64,000 nucleotides of DNA from a virus. A model generated the notes under the pieces. The model had not been told where the DNA came from, made no database searches, and was given only the letters and a program-made list of their open reading frames with translations. Positions 6,548 to 60,798 of this stretch are shown in pieces. A program made the position numbers and the translations under genes. Position 1 is the first letter of the stretch, and each line of letters begins with the position of its first letter. The DNA lies in the IMG/VR virus record IMGVR_UViG_3300036832_001498, positions 1-64,000 of that record; one strand, given 5' to 3'.

Positions 6548-6607
6548 ATGTTCGTGTCTAGCCATATTGCATTGGCTGAGGACGCAACCGAAGCGGGGTT
6601 GCGATGA
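6548..6607 (+). CDS. 19-residue leader ORF coupled to the zinc-finger gene
   Basis: ATG preceded by a very strong GGAGGAG (about 6535-6541), encoding 19 residues (MFVSSHIALAEDATEAGLR). Its TGA overlaps the ATG of the zinc-finger gene, which has no good Shine-Dalgarno of its own. It looks like a leader peptide that delivers ribosomes to the downstream start. Whether the peptide itself does anything is unknown. Confidence 0.5.
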   Translation: MFVSSHIALAEDATEAGLR

Positions 6608-7464
6608 GCGCTGCCCCGGTTCTCACCGCCGATATCAGAAAGCAGCCGGGCAAACACGGCGCTTACCTCTGCCCGGAATGCGGTTCGCGCTATCCCGGAA
6701 AATTTGCTCTGGGCGAGCATCGTCAGAAGCAGCACGACATCCCCAATGACTGGGTGAAGCACACCAAGGGCAGGCCGCCCAAGCCTGCGAGTGATCGCAC
6801 CGCCAAGATCCCCACCCTCGACATCGTCCAGCGCAACGGCCAGTTCAAGTGTCCGGAGTGCGGCGAAAAGTTTCCCAAGCGCAACACCCTCGGGGTGCAC
6901 CGCGCTTCTAAGCATGGGGTGCGCGGCACCTCGGTCGCGGCCAAAAACTACGCCGTGAACCGCGCTGCCACGACTCACGTGAATGGTCACATTGCGACCA
7001 CCGCCGTCAAGCTGGTGCGGGGCAAGTATCGCTGCCCGGAGTGCCAGGCGAAGTACAACGATCTGCAGCATCTCGGTCTGCACCGGCGTGCCGCCCACGA
7101 CATCCACGGCGTGTTCAGCTTCAAGCACCAAGCCCGACAAAAACAAAAACAACTACTCCTGAAAGGAGCACAGCAGAATGAGTACCCAGCCAGCCATGAA
7201 ACCGACAACGATCCAGCCTATCTCTCCCCGTCCCCGCAACCTGTATCACCGAACGGCGCGGGCCGAAGAAAAACAGCGTGGACAAACGAGTCCCTCTCCG
7301 GCTTCGTTTTCGCCCACGTCCACTCTCTCATCGAAGATGCGTGCCGAGGGCGTGAAGACGCTATCCCGGACGTTACCCAGCGGATTTCAGAGCTTCTTCA
7401 CCTTGAGATACATGGGCAAGCGGCGCGGGCACAGCGTGTGGGGCTGCTACGTCGTATGTCCTGA
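6604..7464 (+). CDS. Protein with three classical C2H2 zinc fingers
   Basis: 286 residues. Three fingers follow the eukaryotic-type spacing C-x2-C-x12-H-x4-H exactly: C23/C26/H39/H44, C83/C86/H99/H104 and C144/C147/H160/H165. Each begins with CPEC and has a basic, Gly-containing tip. Between fingers 1 and 2 lies a GRPPK AT-hook-like motif. The C-terminal part (about 215-286) is a separate helical region. Its own promoter and operator suggest a phage-encoded DNA-binding regulator. Bacterial Ros/MucR fingers have a shorter x9 loop, so this differs. The last 287 nt overlap another frame at 7178. Confidence 0.75.
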   Translation: MSAAPVLTADIRKQPGKHGAYLCPECGSRYPGKFALGEHRQKQHDIPNDWVKHTKGRPPKPASDRTAKIPTLDIVQRNGQFKCPECGEKFPKRNTLGVHRASKHGVRGTSVAAKNYAVNRAATTHVNGHIATTAVKLVRGKYRCPECQAKYNDLQHLGLHRRAAHDIHGVFSFKHQARQKQKQLLLKGAQQNEYPASHETDNDPAYLSPSPQPVSPNGAGRRKTAWTNESLSGFVFAHVHSLIEDACRGREDAIPDVTQRISELLHLEIHGQAARAQRVGLLRRMS

Positions 7465-9122: not shown

Positions 9123-9422
9123 GTGGCCGCCCGCCCCAGCTCCACGCGAGTTTGCATCTTGAATCCCAGCGAAGCGGAGACCTTCGCTCAGACCGGGATC
9201 CTGCCTTCGTGCTCCGCCCATCCGCACATTTCAAAAAGCACGGCCACCGAATACATCCAGACCCTGCTGTACTTCGACGGCAAAGTTCGCCGCATGGAGG
9301 CCAGCTGGGCAGGCAAAGGAAAACGCGCCCTGGTGTTTGCTGAAGCCCGCTCCTGGAAGGTCACTCGTGGACCCTCCGGAATCTGGGGCTGGCAGCTGGC
9401 GCATGGAGGAGGAATTCGCTGA
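9123..9422 (+). CDS. Hypothetical protein upstream of the terminase genes
   Basis: 99 residues from a GTG. Ser/Thr-rich start and a beta-rich, basic second half (TEYIQTLLYFDGKVRRMEAS). TGATG overlap with the small terminase gene. No family recognised. Confidence 0.5.
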   Translation: MAARPSSTRVCILNPSEAETFAQTGILPSCSAHPHISKSTATEYIQTLLYFDGKVRRMEASWAGKGKRALVFAEARSWKVTRGPSGIWGWQLAHGGGIR

Positions 9423-9838
9423 TGGCTAATCCACATCGTCCGCCCACTCGCGGGCATCCGCCGTTCGAGCTGGGCAACACCATCGGATTTCAGAAGGGCG
9501 TCTCGGGCAGTGCTGGCCGACCGGTCAAGTGGCGCACCCTGATCACCCATGTGCTGAAAGAAAAACTTTCCCGCATGCAGGGCTCGGGGGAGAACCGCAA
9601 GACCTTCGCCGAAGCGTTGGCGGATCGGCTGGTGGCCTGCGGGCTGCATCCCAAGCCCGAGGAAGACAAGACCGTGATCGCGGCCATCACCGAGATCATC
9701 AACTACACCGAAGGCAAGCCCCGCCAGCAGATCGATGTCAACGACATCACCGAAGCGGTGGCCGCTCGCAGTGACGCGGATCTCGAGTTCTACATCCGCC
9801 ACGGGCACTGGCCGGAAGAAAAAGTCACCACCCAATGA
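9422..9838 (+). CDS. Small terminase-like DNA-binding protein (DUF5681-like)
   Basis: 138 residues. The N-terminal PPFELGNTIGFQKGVSGSAG followed by GRP is the signature of DUF5681-type proteins that sit directly upstream of large terminases. A helical domain (45-90) and an acidic tail follow. It overlaps the terminase ATPase gene by ATGA. Role: DNA recognition for packaging, inferred from family and position. Confidence 0.68.
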   Translation: MANPHRPPTRGHPPFELGNTIGFQKGVSGSAGRPVKWRTLITHVLKEKLSRMQGSGENRKTFAEALADRLVACGLHPKPEEDKTVIAAITEIINYTEGKPRQQIDVNDITEAVAARSDADLEFYIRHGHWPEEKVTTQ

Positions 9839-10506
9839 GTTCTCTGACCAGCGACCTGATGGTGGGGGTGCTGGTCAAGCAGGAACAGCAGCGCCGCCAG
9901 ATCTGGAATCTATGCGGAGAACATGTTTCGAGCTTCGAGCGCGGGCCCATGTGCTGGCTGACCCAGCACACCGCCACCGAGGATTCGCACTGGCTGAAGA
10001 AGAACTCAGCGCCCGTCGCGCCCTTCCCGGCACTGGAATATTTCCTGCCGCTGATGGCGCTGCTGCTTTCCGAGCCCACCCTGTTCATCTCCAAATCGCG
10101 GGAGATGATGACGTCGTGGCTGGTGTGCGGTTACATCGCGTGGCTCACCCAGTGGCTGCCCCAGATTCTCTGCATCATCCAGACCGAGAAGGAAGACAAG
10201 GCAGTGCAACTGATCGAGTACTGCCGCATTCTCTATCGCCGTCAGCCGGAGTGGATGCAGGACAAGAACAAGCTCACCGTCGACAACGCGGTCGAGCTGA
10301 AGCGCAGGAACGGCAGCCATGTTCTCGCCGTGCCCCAGGGCGAGAATCAGGTGCGCCTCTATCACCCTCACCTCTACATGCAGGACGAATCGGCGTTCCT
10401 GCCCGAAGCCGAGCAGTGCTTCAACGCGGTGCGTCCGGTGGCCAAGCAGATTGTGTGTGTGAGTTCGGACGAGGTGGGCTGGTTTCATTTGCAGACCCGG
10501 CGGTGA
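9835..10506 (+). CDS. terL: Large terminase, N-terminal ATPase half only
   Basis: 223 residues. The Walker-A-like segment FISKSREMMTSW lies at 84-95, and the Walker B/catalytic element LYMQDESAF has D184 and E185. The preceding QTEKEDKAVQLIEY and LKRRNGSHVLAVPQGENQVR match the ATPase core of phage large terminases, and the ORF stops right after the motif III region (VCVSSDEVGWFHLQ). The nuclease domain is missing here and is encoded separately at 13892-14941. It would power DNA packaging into proheads at the portal, as half of a two-chain enzyme. Confidence 0.85.
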   Translation: MSSLTSDLMVGVLVKQEQQRRQIWNLCGEHVSSFERGPMCWLTQHTATEDSHWLKKNSAPVAPFPALEYFLPLMALLLSEPTLFISKSREMMTSWLVCGYIAWLTQWLPQILCIIQTEKEDKAVQLIEYCRILYRRQPEWMQDKNKLTVDNAVELKRRNGSHVLAVPQGENQVRLYHPHLYMQDESAFLPEAEQCFNAVRPVAKQIVCVSSDEVGWFHLQTRR

Positions 10507-10517
10507 GGCGGTGATTC

Positions 10518-10742
10518 ATGGCAAAACTTTCGTCAGCCCGGCGTAACGCGCTGCCCGCGAGCACGTTCGTGTTTCCCCAGTCGCGCAAGTTCCCCATTCC
10601 CGATCCTTCGCACGCCCGCAACGCGCTGTCGCGGGCAGCGGCTAAGGGCCCATCGACCGAGGCCCGAGTGCGGGCGGCAGTGAGCCGGAAATTTCCCGGC
10701 ATCGGAAAAAAGAAAAAGTCTTCGGCGTTTTTCGGAGAGTGA
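10518..10742 (+). CDS. Small basic virion-module protein (DUF6582-like) with FFGE C-terminus
   Basis: 74 residues. The pattern ARRNALPASTF...KFPIPDPSHARNALSRAA...AAVSRKFPGI is that of a small family common in phage packaging/head modules. The C-terminus is GKKKKSSAFFGE; the last residues are shared with five other small proteins here. The codons for GE plus the stop (GGAGAGTGATG) form the Shine-Dalgarno of the next gene. Confidence 0.7.
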   Translation: MAKLSSARRNALPASTFVFPQSRKFPIPDPSHARNALSRAAAKGPSTEARVRAAVSRKFPGIGKKKKSSAFFGE

Positions 10743-11623
10743 TGTCGAATTTTCGCGTGCTGCTGATTTCGCCGCCCGGCTACGTGCACTCCGAAGCTCT
10801 GCGCGAAGTGGCCGAGACCCTGATGTACGGGCTGCGCAGCCTCTCTCACCAGGCGGAGATCGCCTCCAGCTTCGCGCCCGGCGCGATCCACATCGTGCTC
10901 TGCCCCCATCTGCTTTCCTCGCGCAGCCAGCTGCCGCAGGGCACCATCCTCTACAACTTCGAGCAGCTGGGAGCGCCCCATCTCGAGTCTCTGATGCATC
11001 TCGCCCGCCACTATCCGGTGTGGGATTACAGCGCCCGTAATATGAAGCAGTGGCCGATCCGCATCGCGCCCATCGAAGTTCCGCTGGGCTATGTGAAGGA
11101 GCTGAACCGCATCGACTCTGCGCCCGAGCAGGACATCGATGTGCTGTTCTACGGATCGATCAATCGCCGCCGCCGCACGCTGGTCGAGCGGCTGCATCGC
11201 GCCGGGCTGAAGGTGATGACCCTGTTCGGCACCTACGGAGCGGAGCGCGACCGCATGATCGCCCGCTCGAAACTGGTGCTCAACATGCATTACTACCCGA
11301 CGCAGATCTTCGAGGTGGTGCGTGTCTCCTACCTGCTGACCAATTCGAAGGCGGTGGTAGCGGAGTGCGACGACTCGACCGAGATCGACAAGGAGATGCG
11401 CTCGGCGGTGGCCTGCGTGCCCTACGAGCTGCTGCGCGACAAATGCGTCGAGCTGGTACGCAATCAGCCGCTGCGCCGAGGCCTCGAGATTCGCGGCCAC
11501 ATCATTTTTTCGAAACGAAGCGAGAAAGAAATTTTGCGCACTGCGCTGGAGAAAACCTATGCCCCCAACCCGACCTTCATTGAATGCGATGCCTCCGATG
11601 CCACCATCGCCCGCGCCTGGTAA
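10742..11623 (+). CDS. Glycosyltransferase-like protein (GT-B)
   Basis: 293 residues from ATG 10742 (an in-frame GTG at 10739 is too close to the Shine-Dalgarno). It begins RVLLISPPGYVHSEA, has IDVLFYGSINRRRRTLVERL near 135-155 (the hinge between two Rossmann folds) and VLNMHYYPTQIFEVVRVSYL near 178-197, resembling the nucleotide-sugar site of GT4-type enzymes. Such genes occur in phages next to head genes; virion or host-surface glycosylation is inferred. The 3' end overlaps the next ORF by 65 nt. Confidence 0.68.
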   Translation: MSNFRVLLISPPGYVHSEALREVAETLMYGLRSLSHQAEIASSFAPGAIHIVLCPHLLSSRSQLPQGTILYNFEQLGAPHLESLMHLARHYPVWDYSARNMKQWPIRIAPIEVPLGYVKELNRIDSAPEQDIDVLFYGSINRRRRTLVERLHRAGLKVMTLFGTYGAERDRMIARSKLVLNMHYYPTQIFEVVRVSYLLTNSKAVVAECDDSTEIDKEMRSAVACVPYELLRDKCVELVRNQPLRRGLEIRGHIIFSKRSEKEILRTALEKTYAPNPTFIECDASDATIARAW

Positions 11624-11822
11624 CGGCACCGGCGATGACGATGAAGCTGCCGAATCACAACAGCTGGACGATCTGGAACAGCGCGTAAGCGCTCTGGAGC
11701 AGGCGGTGTTTGGCCCGCAGGGGTCAGCCGCTCCGGGTGGCCCTCCCAGCGGTGGGCCGGGAGGCCCCACTCAGGGCGGCGGTGGTCCGGGTGGTGGGGG
11801 CAATCCGTTTTTCGGAGGTTGA
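11559..11822 (+). CDS. Short coiled-coil plus Gly-rich tail protein ending NPFFGG
   Basis: 87 residues; ATG 11559 has GGAG 8 nt upstream, inside the glycosyltransferase 3' end (ATG 11589 is an alternative). A heptad segment (LDDLEQRVSALEQAVFG, about 36-52) suggests an oligomer, followed by a Gly/Pro tail and a C-terminal GGGNPFFGG. The last codons provide GGAGG for the next gene. Confidence 0.6.
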   Translation: MPPTRPSLNAMPPMPPSPAPGNGTGDDDEAAESQQLDDLEQRVSALEQAVFGPQGSAAPGGPPSGGPGGPTQGGGGPGGGGNPFFGG

Positions 11823-11825
11823 GCC

Positions 11826-12440
11826 ATGGCGTTCGGACATCCCAGTCAGCAAGATCACATGATGAGCGGCATCCGCCGGGCGATCTCATCGCCGCGCACG
11901 CCGGTGCATCTGAAACCGCATTTGCAGAAACGGCTCGGAGGAGGAGCATCCACCATGCAATCACTTGGAGTCGGTCGCATTCCCGGACTGGGCGCGGAGG
12001 CCAACACGGCAGGCGGACGCACCGCTAACACGCCTCCCAAGAAAGGGGTTCCCCATCTGGGCGCGATCTCGACGCCGCGCCCCAAGGGCGTGCCCAGCTC
12101 CGCGCCCATTCGCGCTCCACGACCGGGTGCGCCCGGTCCTTCCAGCCTGAATTTGCCGAAGCCTCGCGGCGTGCCCGGACCTTCGACGGTGCTCAACATC
12201 AAGGGCAGCTCCGCCGACAAGGGCACTGCCGGTCCCGATCCCCAGACGCTGAAGGCACCCGGCGATCCCGGCAACCTGACTTGGGACATGAACAAGATGG
12301 TGCCGTCGTTTGACAACGTGCCGCGCTCGACCACCAAGCCTGCCTATCAGCGCACGCGAAAGCTGGCCAACAAGAAATACGGCTTCGGAAAATCGAAGAA
12401 CATGAATTCCGCGCCCAACGCCATGTTCGGCGAGTACTGA
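11826..12440 (+). CDS. Pro/Gly-rich probable virion protein ending NAMFGEY
   Basis: 204 residues. Residues 12-38 (MMSGIRRAISSPRTPVHLKP) are a short ordered region; 40-165 are Pro/Gly/Lys-rich with repeated PRPKGVP/PKPRGVPGP units; the C-terminal 40 are basic. Probably a flexible structural protein. The C-terminus is a variant (NAMFGEY) of the aromatic-Gly motif of its neighbours. Start preceded by GGAGG. Confidence 0.58.
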   Translation: MAFGHPSQQDHMMSGIRRAISSPRTPVHLKPHLQKRLGGGASTMQSLGVGRIPGLGAEANTAGGRTANTPPKKGVPHLGAISTPRPKGVPSSAPIRAPRPGAPGPSSLNLPKPRGVPGPSTVLNIKGSSADKGTAGPDPQTLKAPGDPGNLTWDMNKMVPSFDNVPRSTTKPAYQRTRKLANKKYGFGKSKNMNSAPNAMFGEY

Positions 12441-12802
12441 TGCAGACTTCGAGGTTATTCACCGTGCTTGCGGATGGCTCGCTGATGGCCTCTTTAACCA
12501 GGCAGGCGGGGGCTTTCATAGGCAGCAAGGGGGTGACGCTCAACCCTGATGGCTCGCTCTACGTCTCGCAGACCACGGGAGCTGCTAAAAAAACCACCAC
12601 CGGGCTCACCTTCAATGTGGACGGGGCGATGCTGGTGAACCAGTCGAAGAAGGCCGGGATGTATGTGACCAGCGATGGTTTCAGTATCAATCCCAACAAC
12701 GGTGCGGTTTACATCTCGCTGACTAGACAGCCGGGGGCGCACGTCAACACCTTTCAGCTTACCTGCAATCCGGACGGTGCTTTGTTTACGACTCTGGTCT
12801 AG
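12440..12802 (+). CDS. Tandem beta-repeat protein
   Basis: 120 residues, almost entirely about five repeats of roughly 28 residues built around N-P/V-D-G-S/A-L (LADGSLMASLTRQAGAF, NPDGSLYVSQTTGAA, NVDGAMLVNQSKKAG, NPNNGAVYISLTRQPG, NPDGALFTTLV). This suggests a small beta-solenoid or beta-sandwich, perhaps a capsid decoration protein. TGATG overlap with the previous gene. Confidence 0.55.
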   Translation: MQTSRLFTVLADGSLMASLTRQAGAFIGSKGVTLNPDGSLYVSQTTGAAKKTTTGLTFNVDGAMLVNQSKKAGMYVTSDGFSINPNNGAVYISLTRQPGAHVNTFQLTCNPDGALFTTLV

Positions 12803-12811
12803 GGAGTTTTT

Positions 12812-13000
12812 ATGCCCGCTGTTTCTGCCGCGCAACAAAAGGCGATGGCGATTGCCGAGCACGCTCCGGGAAAGTTGTACGCCCGCAATCAGGGACTGCT
12901 GAAAATGTCGCACCAGCAGCTGCACGACTTCGCCGCCACGCCGCGAAAAAATTTACCGGCACGAAAAAAGAAAAAGCCGGATGCGTTCTATGGAGAGTGA
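12812..13000 (+). CDS. DUF3008-family protein ending DAFYGE
   Basis: 62 residues. AQQKAMAIAEHAPGKLYARN and the following GLLKMSHQQLHDFAAT match the DUF3008 family, small basic proteins frequent in phages and bacteria. C-terminus ARKKKKPDAFYGE. AGGGAG lies before the ATG. Function of the family is unknown. Confidence 0.75.
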   Translation: MPAVSAAQQKAMAIAEHAPGKLYARNQGLLKMSHQQLHDFAATPRKNLPARKKKKPDAFYGE

Positions 13001-13006
13001 TCGGCC

Positions 13007-13375
13007 ATGAGCATCACGCTTACCACCGGGTCGTTGGTTGTGGTCAACGGCACTCAGATCGAGAACAACACGACCGGAGGAGAGAGTCATTTCTCCATGG
13101 ACTTTCTCGCCAACACCGTGAGCTTCGAACTGGTGCAGGGCACGATCCAGAGCGGCAACATCAATGCCGGGAACTATCCGCCGAAAATCACCGTCACCGT
13201 GAACCTGACGACGGGCGACTGGTTTGCGACCAGCGGAATGTCGGGACATATTCCACCCTCGAATCCGCAGCTGGTGGCGATTGCCAATCAGTTCAAGGCG
13301 GATCGCAATGCCATGGAGACGTTCGCCGCCGGTGCTTCGGGAATCATGCCGGGGACGCAGGTGCCGTGGCCGTAG
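13007..13375 (+). CDS. Beta-rich hypothetical virion-module protein
   Basis: 122 residues; the Shine-Dalgarno is the GGAGAG that ends the upstream gene. Beta-strand pattern up to about residue 75, then a C-terminal helix. No family recognised. The next gene starts in the last 10 bases. Confidence 0.55.
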   Translation: MSITLTTGSLVVVNGTQIENNTTGGESHFSMDFLANTVSFELVQGTIQSGNINAGNYPPKITVTVNLTTGDWFATSGMSGHIPPSNPQLVAIANQFKADRNAMETFAAGASGIMPGTQVPWP

Positions 13376-13587
13376 ACAAAATTCCGCAAGCGCAATCCGG
13401 CTACATGGAGCTGGCCGGAGCGCGGAAGGACGCAGACTGCGGCAAGGTCGAGGTCAAGGGCGGGATCAGCATGGAACTGGGCTGCTGCAATTACTTCGAA
13501 CCGGAAAACAGCAGCGTGAGCGCGTTCCGCTGCGGCAACTGTGAGTACCACGAACAGAAAAAACGAAATCCCTTTTACGGAGAGTGA
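13366..13587 (+). CDS. Small Cys-rich protein (possible metal cluster) ending NPFYGE
   Basis: 73 residues from GTG 13366. It starts KIPQAQSGYM and has Cys residues in the pattern DCGKV...GCCNYFEP...RCGNCEYH, like small phage proteins proposed to bind zinc or an iron-sulfur cluster. C-terminus QKKRNPFYGE. Its last codons supply GGAGAG for the next ATG. Confidence 0.6.
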   Translation: MAVDKIPQAQSGYMELAGARKDADCGKVEVKGGISMELGCCNYFEPENSSVSAFRCGNCEYHEQKKRNPFYGE

Positions 13588-13588
13588 A

Positions 13589-13891
13589 ATGACTACGACT
13601 ACTACACACACACCGACGCCCACCCACAAGCCCGAGAGCACTCCGCAGTCCAGTAAGTCAGCCAAGGATGCTCCCGAGCCGGTCAACAGCGTGTACGGAT
13701 TCAGCTACAGCGTGGCTTATCCCGATCTGCCGGTCGCTCCCTCGGGCGGCGATATCGGAGTTCGTGTGGTGGCTACTAGCTGGGAGGAGGCCAAGAGCAA
13801 GCTCGATGCGGTGATCACCGAGAAGTTTCCTGCGCCTGCCATTGTCGTGGTTCGTCAGGGCACCATGCTGGTGGAAGACGTAGTCGCCTAA
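13589..13891 (+). CDS. Hypothetical protein with Thr/Pro-rich N-terminus
   Basis: 100 residues; ATG 13589 follows GGAGAG. The first 35 residues are Thr/Pro/Ser-rich, followed by a small alpha/beta domain (VNSVYGFSYSVAYPDLPVAP... and WEEAKSKLDAVITEKF). It ends directly before the terminase nuclease ORF. Confidence 0.55.
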   Translation: MTTTTTHTPTPTHKPESTPQSSKSAKDAPEPVNSVYGFSYSVAYPDLPVAPSGGDIGVRVVATSWEEAKSKLDAVITEKFPAPAIVVVRQGTMLVEDVVA

Positions 13892-14941
13892 ATGGTCCCG
13901 GACAACGCGGTCTCCTATCCCCATCCCGGGATGGAGGTCTGGAAAAACCAGCACGGCATCACGGTGGCGCGTTTGCATTACAGCGCCGATCCCTTCAAGG
14001 GGGACGGCGAAAAAACCTTGGTGCCGGAGATCAACCGTTCGCTGTCGCCTTGGGCGCTCGCCGCCTACAAGGCGATGACCGATCCCAACCAGTACTTGAA
14101 GGAATATGAAATTGATGCTGAGGCGGCGCTGGGTGCGTTGCTGTTCCAGTTCGAGGAGCAGGCCACGGTGGAGAAATCGTTTCCTATTCCGACGCGCTGG
14201 ACCCGGCGCATGGGAGTCGATCCTCATCCCGGGATTGCGCACGCCTTCTTGTGGTGTGCCACTGACCCCTGGGGGGACCGCTGGTACTACCGCGAGCTGT
14301 GGCCCTCCAAGTCCTGCTTCCGCTGGGAAGGGGGAGCCCTGCTGGGCAAGCCCGGTCCCTGCCCGCAGGATGAGAGGGGGCCACGAATTCAGGAGTATGT
14401 GGAAGCGCTGAAGTATCTCGAGTCCCAGGACAATCCGGAAAACTCCGACGGCAAAAAGTTCGAGGAAGAAATTTTCGAACGCGTGATCGACTACGCCGCC
14501 CGGGCTTTCGGCAAAGGCTCCAACGATGATCCCGAGCAGGAAAACTATCAGCAGCGCTACGAGCAGCACATGTACAACCTCGAGCTGCGCCATCCCTTTT
14601 TCTCCGACGCCAAGAAGGACCGGCAGGTGGGGATCGAGCTGGTGAATATGGGATTGAAACCCATCGAGGTGATGGGCAACGACGGCGAGTATCGCACTCG
14701 CAGCCGTATTCACATCTTCGAGGACCGCTGTCCCGAGCTGATCTTCCAGCTCAAAAACAATCGCCGCCAGCGGCTCACGCCTACTCAGGTGGAGCGCCAG
14801 GATCCCACCGGCAAGCCGGTGGCGGTGCGTAATCACATGACCGATCTACTGCGCTACATCGAAATGTCGAACCCGATCTTCATCAAGGCGGAAGCCATGG
14901 AGACAACCTTCCGCCCGCTAGTCGAGGGCTTTTCCTACTGA
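13892..14941 (+). CDS. terL: Large terminase, C-terminal nuclease half only
   Basis: 349 residues. It opens with the hinge region that normally follows the ATPase core (VARLHYSADPFKGD, then EYEIDAEAALGALLFQFEE), then the RNase-H-fold nuclease: GVDPHPGIAHAFLW with D110 as the first catalytic acid and NHMTDLLRYI near the C-terminus with D318 as a likely third. No ATPase motifs are present. It cuts concatemeric DNA during packaging. No clear Shine-Dalgarno precedes the ATG, which immediately follows the upstream stop. It must pair with the ATPase half at 9835-10506, 3.4 kb upstream. Confidence 0.82.
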   Translation: MVPDNAVSYPHPGMEVWKNQHGITVARLHYSADPFKGDGEKTLVPEINRSLSPWALAAYKAMTDPNQYLKEYEIDAEAALGALLFQFEEQATVEKSFPIPTRWTRRMGVDPHPGIAHAFLWCATDPWGDRWYYRELWPSKSCFRWEGGALLGKPGPCPQDERGPRIQEYVEALKYLESQDNPENSDGKKFEEEIFERVIDYAARAFGKGSNDDPEQENYQQRYEQHMYNLELRHPFFSDAKKDRQVGIELVNMGLKPIEVMGNDGEYRTRSRIHIFEDRCPELIFQLKNNRRQRLTPTQVERQDPTGKPVAVRNHMTDLLRYIEMSNPIFIKAEAMETTFRPLVEGFSY

Positions 14942-18952: not shown

Positions 18953-20134
18953 TTGCCGACTCACCAAATTTCTTCCTTCCAAACCTTTGCCACGACCGAG
19001 ACTTCGAACGTTCGTGATGTCTCGACGCGGCTGTTGCTGCTGGAGGTGGACCGCACGCCGCTCTACGTGCTGACCAACAACAGCAAGCGGAAAGTCAACG
19101 TCTACTCACCTCGCATCGAGTTCTTCGAGGATGCCGATCTGGTCATGACCACGACTGTGTCGGTGGCCACTACCTCGGGCGCGGGCAGCCTCACGGTCAC
19201 CGATGCCACCCTGTTCGGAGTGAACGATGTGGTGCAGGTGGCCAGTGCCAACGTCTCCGCCACCATCGATGAACTGGTGCTGGTGAGTGCGGTCGGCACC
19301 AACACCATCACTGTCACTCGCGGCTTTGCTTCGACCTCGGCCAACGCCGTGGGCTCCGGCACCATCCTCAAGATCTTGGGTGTGGCGCAGACTGAGGCGG
19401 GCCCGATTGATGTGCCCCGCGCTCCTTCGAAGAACCCGAAGACCAGCGCGGCGCAGATCTTTGAGTGGCCCATCCAGCTCACCCGCACGGCGGCATCCAC
19501 CCGCGTCTACGGCGACCGCGCAGAGCGGCCCCGCCTGCAGATGCTGGGCATGCGCCGACAGAAGCTGGAGATCGAGAACGCTGGTCTGTTTGCCAGCTAC
19601 ACCGAGACGCTCAGCGGAACTTCATCGCGCTACACCACGATGGGGCTGCGCTCGATCATCTCCACCTTCAACACCGATGCGGGCGGCACCTCCACCCCGA
19701 TGACCCTGAAAGTCTTCATGCAGTACTCGCGCTTCGCCTTCCGTTACGGCTCGCCCGAGAAACTGTTCATGGCGGCTCCCATCGTCAAAGAGGCGCTGGA
19801 TTATTTCGCCGCCAACAAGCAGCTCACCCGGGCGGAGGACAAAGTCTTTGGCGTTTCGCTGAAGCGCTTCGTGACCTCGAACGGCACCTGGATGATCGCC
19901 AACAACTACAACATGGACGGCGGCGCGGTCGACGAGGCTTACGGGATCGATCTGCCGAGCGTGGAGTATTGCCCGTTGGTTGAGAACGGCATCAACAACG
20001 ACACCCAGATGATCCTCGACTACGACAAGACCAATCCCAAGGTCATCAAGGATCTGGTCTACACCCAAGCCGGGTGGAGGATCTGGCATCAGGCACGACA
20101 CTCGCGGCTGTACGACGTGGGCGACTACGCCTGA
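18953..20134 (+). CDS. Major capsid protein, SU10/phiEco32-like (SU10_MCP, formerly DUF5309)
   Basis: 393 residues from TTG 18953 with GAGGAG 6 nt upstream. Conserved family elements are AQIFEWPIQLTRTAASTRVY (about 163-182), the following long helix with an EIENAGLF segment, and YDKTNPKVIKDLVY near the C-terminus. An Ig-like insertion (about 55-140, TVTDATLF...) sits in the N-terminal third. Forms the icosahedral shell (HK97 fold). Followed by a strong terminator. Confidence 0.8.
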   Translation: MPTHQISSFQTFATTETSNVRDVSTRLLLLEVDRTPLYVLTNNSKRKVNVYSPRIEFFEDADLVMTTTVSVATTSGAGSLTVTDATLFGVNDVVQVASANVSATIDELVLVSAVGTNTITVTRGFASTSANAVGSGTILKILGVAQTEAGPIDVPRAPSKNPKTSAAQIFEWPIQLTRTAASTRVYGDRAERPRLQMLGMRRQKLEIENAGLFASYTETLSGTSSRYTTMGLRSIISTFNTDAGGTSTPMTLKVFMQYSRFAFRYGSPEKLFMAAPIVKEALDYFAANKQLTRAEDKVFGVSLKRFVTSNGTWMIANNYNMDGGAVDEAYGIDLPSVEYCPLVENGINNDTQMILDYDKTNPKVIKDLVYTQAGWRIWHQARHSRLYDVGDYA

Positions 20135-45025: not shown

Positions 45026-45100
45026 TGGTGGCCGGGGGGAGAATTGAACTCCCCACGCCTGCCTTTTCAGGGCAGCGCTCTACCGATGAGCTACCCGGCC
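45026..45100 (-). tRNA. tRNA-Phe (GAA), CCA encoded; candidate attP
   Basis: Full cloverleaf on the minus strand: 7-bp acceptor GGCCGGG/CCCGGCC, D stem GCTC/GAGC, anticodon stem CTGCC/GGCAG with loop CTGAAAA (anticodon GAA), T arm GGGAG-TTCAATT-CTCCC, discriminator A and encoded CCA. The D loop is short. It lies 246 bp from the integrase start, the usual attachment-site arrangement. Confidence 0.92.
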
Positions 45101-45310: not shown

Positions 45311-45346
45311 GTTCTCGGGTTGAAACACACCCAAGGAGCACAGCCA

Positions 45347-46921
45347 ATGAACACCACGATTGATCTCGCCGCTGAGCAGGCCGCGATGCGAGCCCGCCAG
45401 ATCCCAGCCAAGACTGTTCAACCAATCGCAGTTGAAGACTTCTCCACTGAAAATGAAGTCGCCGTCGCATGCGCTCACAAGTGGACCGAATTCCTGATCA
45501 AGCAAACTCCCGGGATCCGCCCCGAAGCGAAGGCCATTGTTCTTCGTCACGCGAAGACGTGCAAGCACCAAGACGGCAGCGAGGAATGCGAGTGCAGCAA
45601 GTGGATGTATGTGCGCGGCGAGCGCGAGCGGTTCCCTCTCTTTGTGAGAAACTGGGCAGCGGCCCGAGAGCGCGTGAAGGAATACTGCGACCGCCGCGAT
45701 GTCAAGATGGTGCGCGAGCTGCAACGCGCCGAGGAGTGGGACGCCGAGCACAGCTACCAACGCATGCTGCTCACCGATGGCATCCAACTGATGATCCAAG
45801 CCAAGCTGACCGCGAAGGACACCACTAGGAATCTGGGCCGCGACGTCGCCACCAGCAAGATCGCCACCATCTCGAAACACTTCTTTGCGTTTCTCGACCG
45901 TTACAACCGGAGCCGACCGAGCGCCGAGCCGATCCGCTATTTCGATCAGATCACCACCGGCCTCTTGCAGGATCAGTGGAGGCCGACGTGGCCAGCGCGG
46001 ACCTTCAACACGAAATTCAACTATCGCACCAACGTCATCCACATTTTCCACTACGCCATGGATCAGCACTGGATGCCCGACACGCGCAAGCTGGGTGGCG
46101 ATGGCAAGTGCCAGTGCGTGGCGTGCCGGATGCTCGCACTCACCGGCAAGGGCGACGTGCAGTCGAAGCTGCCCTTCAACATGCCCGACAAGGTCCACAC
46201 CAGCCCTGAGTGGCAGATGCGCTACATCCTCGATGCATGCAAGAAACTCAAATCGGATGTTCGCCCGCACCTCGGCCAGCGCCTCGCAGCTTTGATCGAG
46301 GTGGGCAGCTGGGGCGGCGCTCGCATCTCCGACACATCGCTGATGGCGCGAAGTGCGGTTGATCTGAACACGGGCTCGTGGACGTATCAGCCGCTGAAGA
46401 CGCGCAACACCAGCAAGAAGTGGGTCACCACGCAGCTGCCGCCTCACGTTTGCCAGCTGCTGCGCGAGCTGCCTGCCGCCGCTGACTCCGATCCCGATTA
46501 CTTCTTCTGGACCGGGAAATCGCTGGAGCAGAACGCCGCTGATCCGTGGCACGACGATCTCTCGCAGCTCTGGGCGCTGGTCGACAAGCGAGCGGGAATT
46601 CGTCAGCACAAAAACGACAAGGGGCAGATGGTCTGGGGGATTCGTGATCCCAAGCAGGGTGGCCGCTGGTCGAAGGTTTCGTTTCACAGTTTCCGGAACA
46701 CGTTCGCGGTTCGGTGCCGCATGAGTGGTATGAGCTTCGCCCGCATCGGGGAGCTGATCGGCGACACCGAGCAGACTGTGAAGGATCACTACGCGCACTA
46801 CACAGAAGGCGTCATGAATGCCACCACCGCCGATCTGCGGCAGACTTGGCCGACGCGGCAGCACGAGGAGCTGGTTCTCAGAGAATCAGCTTCCTCGGTG
46901 GGCCACGTCGCACAGGCTTAG
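45347..46921 (+). CDS. int: Tyrosine recombinase (phage integrase)
   Basis: 524 residues from ATG 45347 with AAGGAGCACAGC upstream. The N-terminus has a Cys/His cluster (KTCKHQDGSEECECSKWMYV) of the kind seen in acidobacterial integrases. The core-binding domain lies about 140-260. Catalytic residues: R326 (GGARISD), a Lys in KTRNTSKK, H447/R450 (HSFRNTF), and Y482 or Y485 in DHYAHY. Integrates the phage, probably at tRNA-Phe. Converges with the excisionase-like gene (44-nt overlap). Confidence 0.93.
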   Translation: MNTTIDLAAEQAAMRARQIPAKTVQPIAVEDFSTENEVAVACAHKWTEFLIKQTPGIRPEAKAIVLRHAKTCKHQDGSEECECSKWMYVRGERERFPLFVRNWAAARERVKEYCDRRDVKMVRELQRAEEWDAEHSYQRMLLTDGIQLMIQAKLTAKDTTRNLGRDVATSKIATISKHFFAFLDRYNRSRPSAEPIRYFDQITTGLLQDQWRPTWPARTFNTKFNYRTNVIHIFHYAMDQHWMPDTRKLGGDGKCQCVACRMLALTGKGDVQSKLPFNMPDKVHTSPEWQMRYILDACKKLKSDVRPHLGQRLAALIEVGSWGGARISDTSLMARSAVDLNTGSWTYQPLKTRNTSKKWVTTQLPPHVCQLLRELPAAADSDPDYFFWTGKSLEQNAADPWHDDLSQLWALVDKRAGIRQHKNDKGQMVWGIRDPKQGGRWSKVSFHSFRNTFAVRCRMSGMSFARIGELIGDTEQTVKDHYAHYTEGVMNATTADLRQTWPTRQHEELVLRESASSVGHVAQA

Positions 46922-58292: not shown

Positions 58293-58690
58293 TGTGCCGC
58301 TCCTTTCAAATTCTTGGACTCGCTGATCGACTCCGTAATGAGGCTGCGGATGTCTTTGTGGATGGAGGCGGCGAGGCAAACAGCGGAGCTATCGCCGCCC
58401 TGGCCGTGAAGTACGTGGCCTCCATCATTTTCCGCCTCCACGAGAAATGGGGGATCACCGGCTTCGCTGTGGGTGACCTTGCCGGTCGCGATGGCACACA
58501 GCGGGCAAGCGGCGGCGGCCATCGACTCCAGCGCATTCACCAGCATCGGGGCTTTATCGCGGGAGAAGCGCTGCACCTCCAGGTAGCGGCGGCGCAGGCG
58601 GAAGCCGTTCACGAAATTCACCACCAGCAGAATGCCGATGGTGACATCGAAAAACAAACGCCAGTAGATTTCCGCCTTCGCCCAGTTCAT
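58289..58690 (-). CDS. Single-pass membrane protein
   Basis: 133 residues from ATG 58690. N-terminal transmembrane helix (LFFDVTIGILLVVNFVNGF, about 11-29) followed by basic residues, so a cytoplasmic C-terminal part with CPLC near 62-65. Downstream of the beta-helix lipoprotein (ATGA overlap). Confidence 0.58.
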   Translation of the reverse strand: MNWAKAEIYWRLFFDVTIGILLVVNFVNGFRLRRRYLEVQRFSRDKAPMLVNALESMAAAACPLCAIATGKVTHSEAGDPPFLVEAENDGGHVLHGQGGDSSAVCLAASIHKDIRSLITESISESKNLKGAAQ

Positions 58691-60798
58691 TTTTTCCTGC
58701 TCGCTTGCGTGACCGTGGAGCGCACGCCTTGGGTGTAGAGGTTGACGGCATCGACGTCGGCCCCGGGATCTTTGCCATCGAGCGCCTTGCCCCGGAACGG
58801 ACTGGTGGGTGCGAGGTGATAGTCGCCGCCGTCGCCATTGTTGTAATTCACGAAGCCCACGGTTGACCAGTCGGTGACCGTGAAATTTCCCGGAGGCCAC
58901 GAAGTCGAAGGCAGGCTCACGCCGTGATAGCCGACCAGCAGATTTCCCGACATCAGACTGTCGCCGATCCAGCAGTTCGCAAATTTCGAAATAGGGCGCA
59001 GATCGCCTTTGATGTTGGAGCAGTTCTGGGTTGAATCCCCGCCCGTGGGATAGGCACCATTCTCGCCTGCAGCGGCGATCCAGTTGGTGAGTTTGATGTT
59101 GGACATCTGCGGAGTCTTGGTCGGATTTCCCGGCGGAGGTCCGTTCATCTGCAGCAGGGAGTGTTGCTGGTAGCGCCCGGTGCCCAGAAACTGATTGGCG
59201 ATCAGGGTGAAATGGTCGAGCAGGATGTCGTGAAAAATTTCGTTGTGAGGCGGATTGGTGGTCGAGTAATAGTTCGAGAATCCGTTGAGGCTGCCGCCTT
59301 GGCAGGCATAGCAGGTCAGATATTGCATCCCGTCGAAGATCAGGTCGTGCATGCTGATGCGCCCGCCACCGGAAGACCACAGACCGGAATCGTTAGGCGA
59401 ATTGAACAGGTTCAGACCAACGCCGGAGTGCACCATGAGGTTGTAGCGCATGGTGAGATCAGTGATCGAGCACAGCGGACACTGATTGGGCGGAACTCCA
59501 TCCTGATTTTTTGGACCGATCACCAGCCCGAAGCCGACTTGGCTGAATCCGCCCCAGTTGTTTTCGAGCACGTTGCCTTCGAACAAAATCCTGCAGCCCG
59601 TCTTCAGTTCGAAAAGATTTTTGACCACGTAGGTCGGTTTGACGTAGCCCGGGTCACTGGGGTTCCAGGTGGCGGGCTTGTACATGTGGTTGCGGCGGAT
59701 CTCGATGTCGTAGGGACAGCCATCGCCGACGCTTCCGCCGAAGAGAATGGTCTCGGCGGCCCCTTCCAGAAAATTGTTCTTGATCGCCCACACTCCGGCC
59801 TGCGCGGTGTTAGCCCCAGCTCCGCCCGCAATGGCCTGCGCGTCGACGCATGCGCCCGTCACAGCAATGCAGTGAAATTCGCTGAACCAGGAATCGACCA
59901 CGCCCACGTAGCTGGTGGCGTTGTGCAGCTGGATGCCGCGCCGCGATTCTTGGCCCGGGTTGCCGTGCATAAAAACTCTGTCAAATACGACATGGTTGGT
60001 GTCGGTGAGCTGCGCGAAATTCACCGTGGGCACGGTGCTGCCCTTCGCGACCTCCATCCCGATGAAGCGGATGTGGTCGCCGACGTTCATGGCACTGCTG
60101 CCGAAAACATTCACGCGAAACATTTCCGGCGCATCGGCAGGTGTGACCCGCGTGCCTTCCGGCGGCAAGGCCGTGCTGGTGGAGCGAATGGTGATCCAGT
60201 GCCCGTCGTCGCAGTTCTTGGGCGCGAAGTTGAGCGCCTTGACGGTGCCCCACACACTGCCTTTGGGGACGTAGATGGTCTGCCCGCACTGCGCCCCGTC
60301 ATAGGCGGCCTGCAGGTTTTGGAGATTGCCTGCGCCCACGCTGATGCCGCCACCGGGTGAGGGAGTCGAGGCCAGCGCTGTGTTGAAGCAGCGGATGGGC
60401 AGGTTTGCCGGGCCATCCGTTTTCGCGCCCAGCCACACATTGCCGGGTCCGCAGTATTCGTTGCCTGCTGCCGCAGCTGCCGTGACCTTGACAATGATGT
60501 CGGCATTGGCGCTGTGTCCTTGCCCGTCCGAGGCTGCGACTGCGGCATCGAATTCGCCCGCCTGCGCGTAGGTGTGCTGCTGCACTGCGCCGGGAACTGT
60601 GTTGTGCGTGCCATCGCCAAAATCCCACGCGTAGGCGACGCAGCCGGTGCAGGTCGCGGTCAGCGTCACGGCCAGAGGCGCAGCCCCGGTCTGCGGCACC
60701 ACGGCCAGGGAGATGGCGGAGGTAGAGCGGCGGCAGGCGGGAGCGAAGGTGAGCAGCGAAGCCATGAGAGCGAGGGCGAAGATCCTGAGCGTGGGCAT
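58687..60798 (-). CDS. Secreted PKD/right-handed beta-helix protein (possible lipoprotein)
   Basis: 703 residues, AAGGAG before the ATG. Signal peptide to FAPAC (C22; lipobox-like). PKD domain about 27-108 (AYAWDFGDGTHN, QHTYAQAGEFDAAVAASDGQ). About 125-690 show the repeated short strands of a right-handed beta-helix (IRFIGMEVAKGST, VVFDRVFMHGN, IEIRRNHMYK, ILFEGNVLENN), as in pectate-lyase or surface-polysaccharide enzymes. No catalytic triad is evident. It would act outside the lysogen. Confidence 0.75.
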   Translation of the reverse strand: MPTLRIFALALMASLLTFAPACRRSTSAISLAVVPQTGAAPLAVTLTATCTGCVAYAWDFGDGTHNTVPGAVQQHTYAQAGEFDAAVAASDGQGHSANADIIVKVTAAAAAGNEYCGPGNVWLGAKTDGPANLPIRCFNTALASTPSPGGGISVGAGNLQNLQAAYDGAQCGQTIYVPKGSVWGTVKALNFAPKNCDDGHWITIRSTSTALPPEGTRVTPADAPEMFRVNVFGSSAMNVGDHIRFIGMEVAKGSTVPTVNFAQLTDTNHVVFDRVFMHGNPGQESRRGIQLHNATSYVGVVDSWFSEFHCIAVTGACVDAQAIAGGAGANTAQAGVWAIKNNFLEGAAETILFGGSVGDGCPYDIEIRRNHMYKPATWNPSDPGYVKPTYVVKNLFELKTGCRILFEGNVLENNWGGFSQVGFGLVIGPKNQDGVPPNQCPLCSITDLTMRYNLMVHSGVGLNLFNSPNDSGLWSSGGGRISMHDLIFDGMQYLTCYACQGGSLNGFSNYYSTTNPPHNEIFHDILLDHFTLIANQFLGTGRYQQHSLLQMNGPPPGNPTKTPQMSNIKLTNWIAAAGENGAYPTGGDSTQNCSNIKGDLRPISKFANCWIGDSLMSGNLLVGYHGVSLPSTSWPPGNFTVTDWSTVGFVNYNNGDGGDYHLAPTSPFRGKALDGKDPGADVDAVNLYTQGVRSTVTQASRKK

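What the first reader, a model, noticed from the sequence alone, without database searches (positions are those of the whole stretch)
9835..14941. Large terminase split into separate ATPase and nuclease genes 3.4 kb apart
The ORF at 9835-10506 has only the ATPase core (Walker A-like KSREMM, Walker B MQDES) and stops after motif III. The ORF at 13892-14941 begins with the hinge (HYSADPFKGD...EYEIDAEA) and carries only the nuclease (GVDPHPGIAHAF, NHMTD). Ten intact small genes lie between. The break is exactly at the interdomain linker and both catalytic centres are intact, which argues for a working two-subunit motor rather than decay.
Basis: partly seen in the sequence, partly recalled or inferred. 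Interest (0 to 1): 0.78.

Follow-up and report, generated by a model that had tools for sequence, protein, structure and literature searches.

The report
Phage DNA-packaging motor in two genes
In this uncultured phage and in more than a hundred relatives, the protein motor that stuffs DNA into the virus head, normally one protein, is encoded as two separate ones (the ATP-burning engine core, and a second chain with the moving lid and the DNA cutter), which suggests that the motor does not have to be a single chain.

Summary
Window 9835-10506 encodes a T4-type large-terminase (TerL) ATPase core and 13892-14941 the nuclease half, 3,385 nt apart, with nine small ORFs between.

It is neither decay nor misassembly. 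Of 144 distinct loci found by profile search, 134 carry the two parts in separate ORFs and 10 in one; 19 split loci have the nuclease gene first. The break is always at the same place, 13-21 residues after ATPase motif III. Catalytic residues are intact, both halves are under purifying selection, and their trees mirror each other (r = 0.84; permuted maximum 0.08).

One correction: the break is not at the interdomain linker. It lies between ATPase core (NsubI) and lid (NsubII), at T4 gp17 ~302/304. Lid and hinge stay joined to the nuclease, which may be why the split is tolerated.

Some relatives' junctions hold homing endonucleases, the known cause of functional 'genes in pieces'. In the window's own clade the junction holds small basic proteins with a shared C-terminal tag, KK(K/R)xSAF(Y/F)GE. 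I found no report of such a phage TerL in the literature searched; mirusvirus and alloherpesvirus TerLs are split but trans-spliced. Two-chain function is inferred, not shown.

The parts
9422..9838 (+). DUF5681 protein, likely small terminase (TerS)
   Evidence: Pfam DUF5681 E 1.9e-4, below its gathering score; overlaps the ATPase gene by ATGA; assignment by position is inference
9835..10506 (+). TerL chain 1: ATPase core (NsubI), 223 aa; Walker A K87/R89, Walker B D184/E185, motif III S210-S211
   Evidence: PHROG 5989 3.6e-7; Foldseek T4 gp17 9.5e-10; hhalign to T4-like TerLs 2.3e-24; residues invariant
10518..10742 (+). small basic protein, DUF6582-like family, ends KKKKSSAFFGE
10739..11623 (+). 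294-aa ORF, no Pfam match (glycosyltransferase-like by eye only)
11559..11822 (+). 87-aa low-complexity ORF, ends GNPFFGG
11826..12440 (+). 204-aa protein with the conserved N-terminus GxPxQxxHMxxGxxxAxxSPxTPxHLxPHL found between the two terL halves of 31 loci; ends NAMFGEY
12440..12802 (+). 120-aa repeat protein (xxNPDGSLxx)
12812..13000 (+). 62-aa DUF3008-like protein, ends KKKKPDAFYGE
13007..13375 (+). 122-aa ORF; a relative lies downstream of portal in L007
13366..13587 (+). small Cys-containing protein (GARKDADC..CCNYF..CGNCEYH), ends KKRNPFYGE; start codon assigned by homology
13589..13891 (+). 100-aa ORF, stop next to the following start (TAAATGG); start codon assigned by me
13892..14941 (+). 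TerL chain 2: lid (about residues 14-85), linker, RNase-H nuclease (D110, D200, D318), 349 aa
   Evidence: Foldseek D6E TerL 2.9e-5, P22 nuclease 6.1e-5; lid aligned to T4 305-365; residues
14943..17378 (+). portal protein (context)
   Evidence: PHROG 1216 E 0.0037, weak; conserved position after chain 2
18953..20134 (+). SU10-type major capsid protein (context)
   Evidence: Pfam SU10_MCP 2e-24

Best explanation
This is a two-chain large terminase. Chain 1 (9835-10506) is the ASCE ATPase core, the 'engine'. Chain 2 (13892-14941) is the lid ('transmission'), the hinge and the RNase-H nuclease. The chains should assemble non-covalently across the core-lid face, so that the ATP cleft between core and lid is formed by both chains, and then form the packaging ring on the portal like an ordinary TerL. 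The split is old and shared by a large group of uncultured phages; fused and split forms interchange several times on the tree, always at the same point. Homing endonucleases found at the junction in some relatives suggest how the gap is opened or widened; in the window's clade it later became a landing place for small tagged basic proteins. Shown: gene structure, domain content, breakpoint, conservation, co-evolution, recurrence. Inferred: physical assembly, packaging function, and the role of homing endonucleases in the original fission.
For: Of 144 distinct loci, 115 are split with the ATPase first, 19 split with the nuclease first, 10 fused. Split ATPase ORFs end 13-21 aa after motif III (5th-95th percentile); split halves together have about as many residues there (median 16, plus some 28 in the window) as fused ones (29-65), so nothing is missing. 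Catalytic residues present in 131-134 of 134 split loci. Mirror-tree r 0.835 against a permuted maximum of 0.077, which includes shared descent. dN well below dS in both halves, e.g. L007/L032 0.062/0.612 and 0.055/0.501. Breakpoint mapped to T4 gp17 ~302/304. In T4, separating ATPase and nuclease domains without the hinge abolishes translocation (PMC9958956); here the hinge is kept on chain 2. HNH/NUMOD ORFs sit at the junction in relatives, e.g. L066, L061.
Against: No experiment and no complex model (only single-chain prediction was available). The nuclease model is of moderate confidence (pLDDT 68), and its lid alignment to T4 is weak on its own (E 0.08-0.3); the mapping rests on fused in-family TerLs. 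All complete or cultured phages found with a related nuclease or ATPase domain and inspected have a fused TerL, so no split member is known in culture. No homing endonuclease was recognised in the window's own gap (no Pfam/PHROG match in the ORFs scanned).
Confidence: 0.85

Rival explanations
1. The halves are rejoined by RNA or protein trans-splicing (split intron or split intein), as in mirusvirus and alloherpesvirus terminases, so that a single TerL chain is made.
For: Mirusvirus TerL ATPase and nuclease domains are encoded apart and trans-spliced (PMC12768974); HNH/LAGLIDADG genes often ride introns and inteins.
Against: No intron family matched in the window by Rfam. Each half has its own stop/start at a conserved place; L060, L062, L063 and L064 overlap out of frame by a few nt with no room for an intron. 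Chain 1 stops 13-21 aa after motif III, too soon for an intein half.
Confidence: 0.04
2. Each half works alone: a stand-alone packaging ATPase (phi29 gp16-like) plus a stand-alone resolving nuclease, without forming a composite ATP site.
For: phi29-type motors work without an active TerL nuclease (own knowledge); the genes are up to 5.6 kb apart and in swapped order in one clade.
Against: The lid that closes the ATP cleft is on the nuclease chain and is as conserved as the active site (H29, Y30 133/134; E71, E73 134/134); halves co-vary; no locus with both profiles had them on opposite strands.
Confidence: 0.09
3. Decay or assembly artefact.
For: Split genes are often artefacts; the source is metagenomic.
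Against: 133 other distinct split loci from many metagenomes, intact catalytic residues, purifying selection.
Confidence: 0.02

Closest known systems
T4 gp17-type large terminase (TerL)
   Same: ATPase core fold and motifs; lid; RNase-H nuclease; lies between a likely TerS and portal
   Different: Two polypeptides instead of one, broken between NsubI and NsubII; the nuclease sequence is not recognisably T4-like
Genes-in-pieces phage enzymes: Aeh1 NrdA (mobE), T4 topoisomerase large subunit (mobA in gene 60), phage 25 gp43A/B (PMC2988022)
   Same: A normally single enzyme encoded as two chains, homing endonucleases at or near the junction in some members, function retained in the studied cases
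   Different: Those are single or few phages; here a large, old group with the packaging motor, reversed order in one clade and cargo genes in the gap
Mirusvirus and alloherpesvirus terminase (PMC12768974)
   Same: ATPase and nuclease parts encoded apart
   Different: Those are joined by trans-splicing, at a site near Walker B; here two mature chains are predicted and the break is after motif III
TerL genes interrupted by introns/inteins, e.g. Campylobacter phage IBB_35 (PMC3322345)
   Same: Mobile elements target terL
   Different: Those are spliced to one protein

Membership tests
Large terminase (T4 gp17-type TerL) | ASCE ATPase core with Walker A K/R, Walker B DE, motif III | tested here: met
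   K87, R89, D184, E185 134/134, S210 129/134; Foldseek 3cpe 9.5e-10
Large terminase (T4 gp17-type TerL) | RNase-H nuclease with acidic triad | tested here: met
   D110 134/134, D200 133/134, D318 131/134; P22 and D6E structures matched
Large terminase (T4 gp17-type TerL) | Lid subdomain joined by a hinge to the nuclease | tested here: met
   On chain 2; mapping through fused relatives, lid alone weak
Large terminase (T4 gp17-type TerL) | ATPase core and nuclease in one polypeptide | tested here: not met
   Separate ORFs in 134 of 144 loci, the window included
Large terminase (T4 gp17-type TerL) | ATP-driven DNA packaging and cleavage | not testable with these tools
   needs biochemistry
Homing-endonuclease-split 'gene in pieces' | Contiguous homologue in relatives | tested here: met
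   10 fused in-family ORFs of 506-594 aa
Homing-endonuclease-split 'gene in pieces' | Homing endonuclease gene at the junction | tested here: inconclusive
   Present in several relatives; none recognised in the window gap
Homing-endonuclease-split 'gene in pieces' | Fragments assemble into an active enzyme | not testable with these tools
   co-expression needed
Trans-spliced terminase (mirusvirus type) | Splice signals or room for intron/intein at the junction | tested here: not met
   Rfam negative for the window; out-of-frame overlaps in adjacent forms

The most novel reading that the evidence does not exclude
A large lineage of uncultured phages runs its packaging motor as an obligate two-chain machine in which the ATPase core is a separate, potentially exchangeable protein and the lid-hinge-nuclease is the other, with fission and re-fusion happening repeatedly at one site; and in one branch the gap has become a cassette for small basic proteins carrying a common C-terminal (K)n-x-S-A-F-(Y/F)-G-E tag, plausibly a head-targeting or motor-docking signal.
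Probability: 0.45. Interest if true: 0.85.

Novelty: new variant of a known kind. Interest (0 to 1): 0.74.

Why it matters
TerL is used as a universal single-gene marker of tailed phages and as a model of force transmission through one chain. In T4, separating the ATPase and nuclease domains without the hinge kills translocation (PMC9958956). A natural break between core and lid says which covalent link matters (lid-hinge-nuclease) and which may not (core-lid), and gives a direct test of the transmission model. Practically, annotation that expects one terL will miss or mis-score this group: the window halves score at best 3.6e-7 (ATPase) and 0.017 (nuclease) in PHROGs and have no Pfam terminase hit.

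Tried and rejected
Pfam gave only a chance SAM_decarbox hit for chain 1. The first iterated ATPase profile absorbed the lid and wrongly called most split loci fused; rebuilt from split ATPase ORFs only. NUC versus T4-like profiles directly: no significant match; solved through fused in-family TerLs. tblastn of the window nuclease in INPHARED: nothing. The GTDB scan with A1 found nothing; with A2 one short contig in an Acidobacteriota MAG, weak host evidence. Programmed frameshifting: possible only where genes overlap, cannot explain gaps of kilobases. Shine-Dalgarno as cause of the shared FFGE/FYGE ends: rejected as the sole cause, because 24 different DNA words encode it. Literature searches for a split phage terminase: none found; the library is incomplete.

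Full report
Observation. The ORF at 9835-10506 (223 aa) carries ATPase motifs and stops 12-13 residues after motif III (SSDEVGWFHLQTRR*); the ORF at 13892-14941 (349 aa) carries an RNase-H nuclease. Family libraries barely see them: PHROG 5989 'terminase large subunit' 3.6e-7 for the first, ~0.02 for the second, no Pfam terminase. Predicted structures settle it: chain 1 (pLDDT 85) is T4 gp17-like (3cpe, 9.5e-10, TM 0.70) and chain 2 (pLDDT 68) matches D6E TerL and the P22 nuclease domain. The neighbourhood is a head module: a TerS-like DUF5681 protein overlapping chain 1 by ATGA, then chain 1, nine small ORFs, chain 2, portal, SU10-type capsid protein.

Not an artefact. Scans of IMG/VR with each half found the same split in every close relative carrying both parts. 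Widening with distant members and classifying by profiles built from split ATPase ORFs only gave, for 144 distinct loci: 115 split with ATPase first, 19 split with nuclease first, 10 fused in one ORF of 506-594 aa. An earlier iteration had called many split loci fused because the ATPase profile had grown into the lid. The 19 swapped loci form one clade (support 100), which shows directly that these are two independent genes there.

Where the break is. Chain 1 aligns to T4 gp17 up to about residue 302 (E 2.3e-24). The N-terminus of chain 2 aligns best just after that, T4 305-365, weakly on its own (E 0.3; 0.08 for the lid alone). Fused in-family TerLs align to the T4-like profile over 466 columns (E 5.5e-31) and place motif III, the lid strand (..THYSADP..) and the lid helix (..REMEID..) in continuous order before the nuclease. 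So chain 1 is NsubI and chain 2 is NsubII (lid) + hinge + nuclease. The NsubI/NsubII boundary in T4 near residue 313 is from my own knowledge; in D6E the polypeptide leads from the lid through a linker at 230-241 into the nuclease domain (PMC5727402). Split ATPase ORFs end 13-21 residues after motif III (5th-95th percentile, 134 loci); fused proteins have 29-65 residues between motif III and the conserved lid His-Tyr, so nothing is missing in the split form.

Function kept. K87, R89, D184, E185 and D110 are present in 134/134 split loci, D200 in 133, D318 in 131; lid residues E71/E73 in 134. Close pairs show dN well below dS in both halves. Distances in the two half-trees correlate at r = 0.835, permuted maximum 0.077; this includes shared descent and is not by itself proof of contact.

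History. Fused members sit in five places in the tree, six changes with T4-like outgroups, at least four forced by well-supported branches; split as one clade is rejected (AU p 1.9e-6), with the caution that some fused members are on long branches. Direction is not settled: an early fission with several re-fusions, or repeated fission at one site. In L060, L062, L063 and L064 the genes overlap by a few nucleotides out of frame, from which one indel could fuse or split them. In L066 an HNH endonuclease ORF sits exactly at the junction, and its last residues (FFHYLVENKL) repeat the end of the ATPase gene of its endonuclease-free relative L063 (FFHYLVENKCKD); L061 has a NUMOD4-HNH ORF there. Among 45 gap ORFs outside the window's clade, Pfam finds HNH (4), HNH_3 (3), HNH_2 (1), LAGLIDADG (1) and GIY-YIG (1), with possible overlap between models. 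In the window's clade one HNH_3 and one endonuclease VII were seen among 55 representative gap ORFs. Homing endonucleases are thus repeat visitors of this junction; that they caused the original split is inference from T4-group precedents (PMC2988022).

Mechanism. T4 work describes NsubI as engine, NsubII as transmission and the C-domain as wheel, with a hinge whose loss abolishes translocation although the separate domains keep their activities (PMC9958956). The natural split leaves transmission, hinge and wheel on one chain and detaches only the engine, at the face where ATP binds. I expect chain 1 to dock on the lid of chain 2, ATP sitting at the interface, and the heterodimers to form the ring on the portal. 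Assembly and activity are not shown.

Mosaic origin. T4-like fused TerLs match the ATPase core (1e-39 to 1e-63) but not the nuclease, while several complete phages (cto1L10, Hodr, ctUh1700, MEP301, API480, ctEqG8; all with one TerL of 483-518 aa) match the nuclease (1e-18 to 1e-36) but not the ATPase core. The two domains therefore have different nearest kin. No split member was found among the annotated phages inspected.

Side finding. In 34 loci of the window's clade, 73 of 412 gap ORFs but only 10 of 1512 ORFs elsewhere end in a tag with consensus KKK(K/R)x(S/A)AF(Y/F)GE, against 0 of 1998 in 109 other loci of the family; 87 of 1969 forward versus 4 of 2327 reverse ORFs. It is attached to unrelated small basic families (DUF6496, DUF6582, DUF3008 and others) and encoded by 24 different DNA words, so it is selected as protein and is not merely the next gene's ribosome-binding site. 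Its function is unknown; a head-targeting or motor-docking signal is my guess.

Novelty. I found no report of a phage TerL in two mature chains (library incomplete). The nearest are mirusvirus and alloherpesvirus terminases, split but trans-spliced (PMC12768974), and homing-endonuclease-split phage enzymes. I rate it a new variant of a known kind.

Noticed in passing
window 10742, 11822, 13000, 13587, 33929 (ORF ends) and 30+ relatives: Unrelated small basic proteins share a C-terminal tag KKK(K/R)x(S/A)AF(Y/F)GE, concentrated between the two terL halves and absent from other loci of the TerL family.
   Followed up: partly
window 11826-12440: Protein family with a conserved N-terminus (SPxTPxHLxPHL) found between the terL halves in 31 loci; no database match.
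   Followed up: partly
L120-L122, L125, L127, L128, L131, L136, L137, L140-L145, L151, L152, L154, L159: One clade has the nuclease gene 1.3-2.1 kb upstream of the ATPase gene, with an unannotated conserved protein family in between.
   Followed up: partly
L066:1552-2157: HNH endonuclease whose C-terminal residues copy the end of the ATPase gene of a relative, at the terL junction.
   Followed up: yes
window 45320-46921 and 45026-45100: An integrase-like ORF lies next to a tRNA-Phe gene, suggesting a temperate phage with a tRNA attachment site; integration site not examined.
   Followed up: no
window 6604-7464: ORF with repeated C2H2 zinc-finger-like CPEC...HRxxxH motifs, unusual in a phage.
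   Followed up: no
window 58687-60798 (-): 703-aa protein with a PKD domain, possibly for surface adhesion.
   Followed up: no
L273: Related ATPase half plus tagged small proteins on a 7.3-kb contig binned in an Acidobacteriota MAG: a weak host hint.
   Followed up: partly
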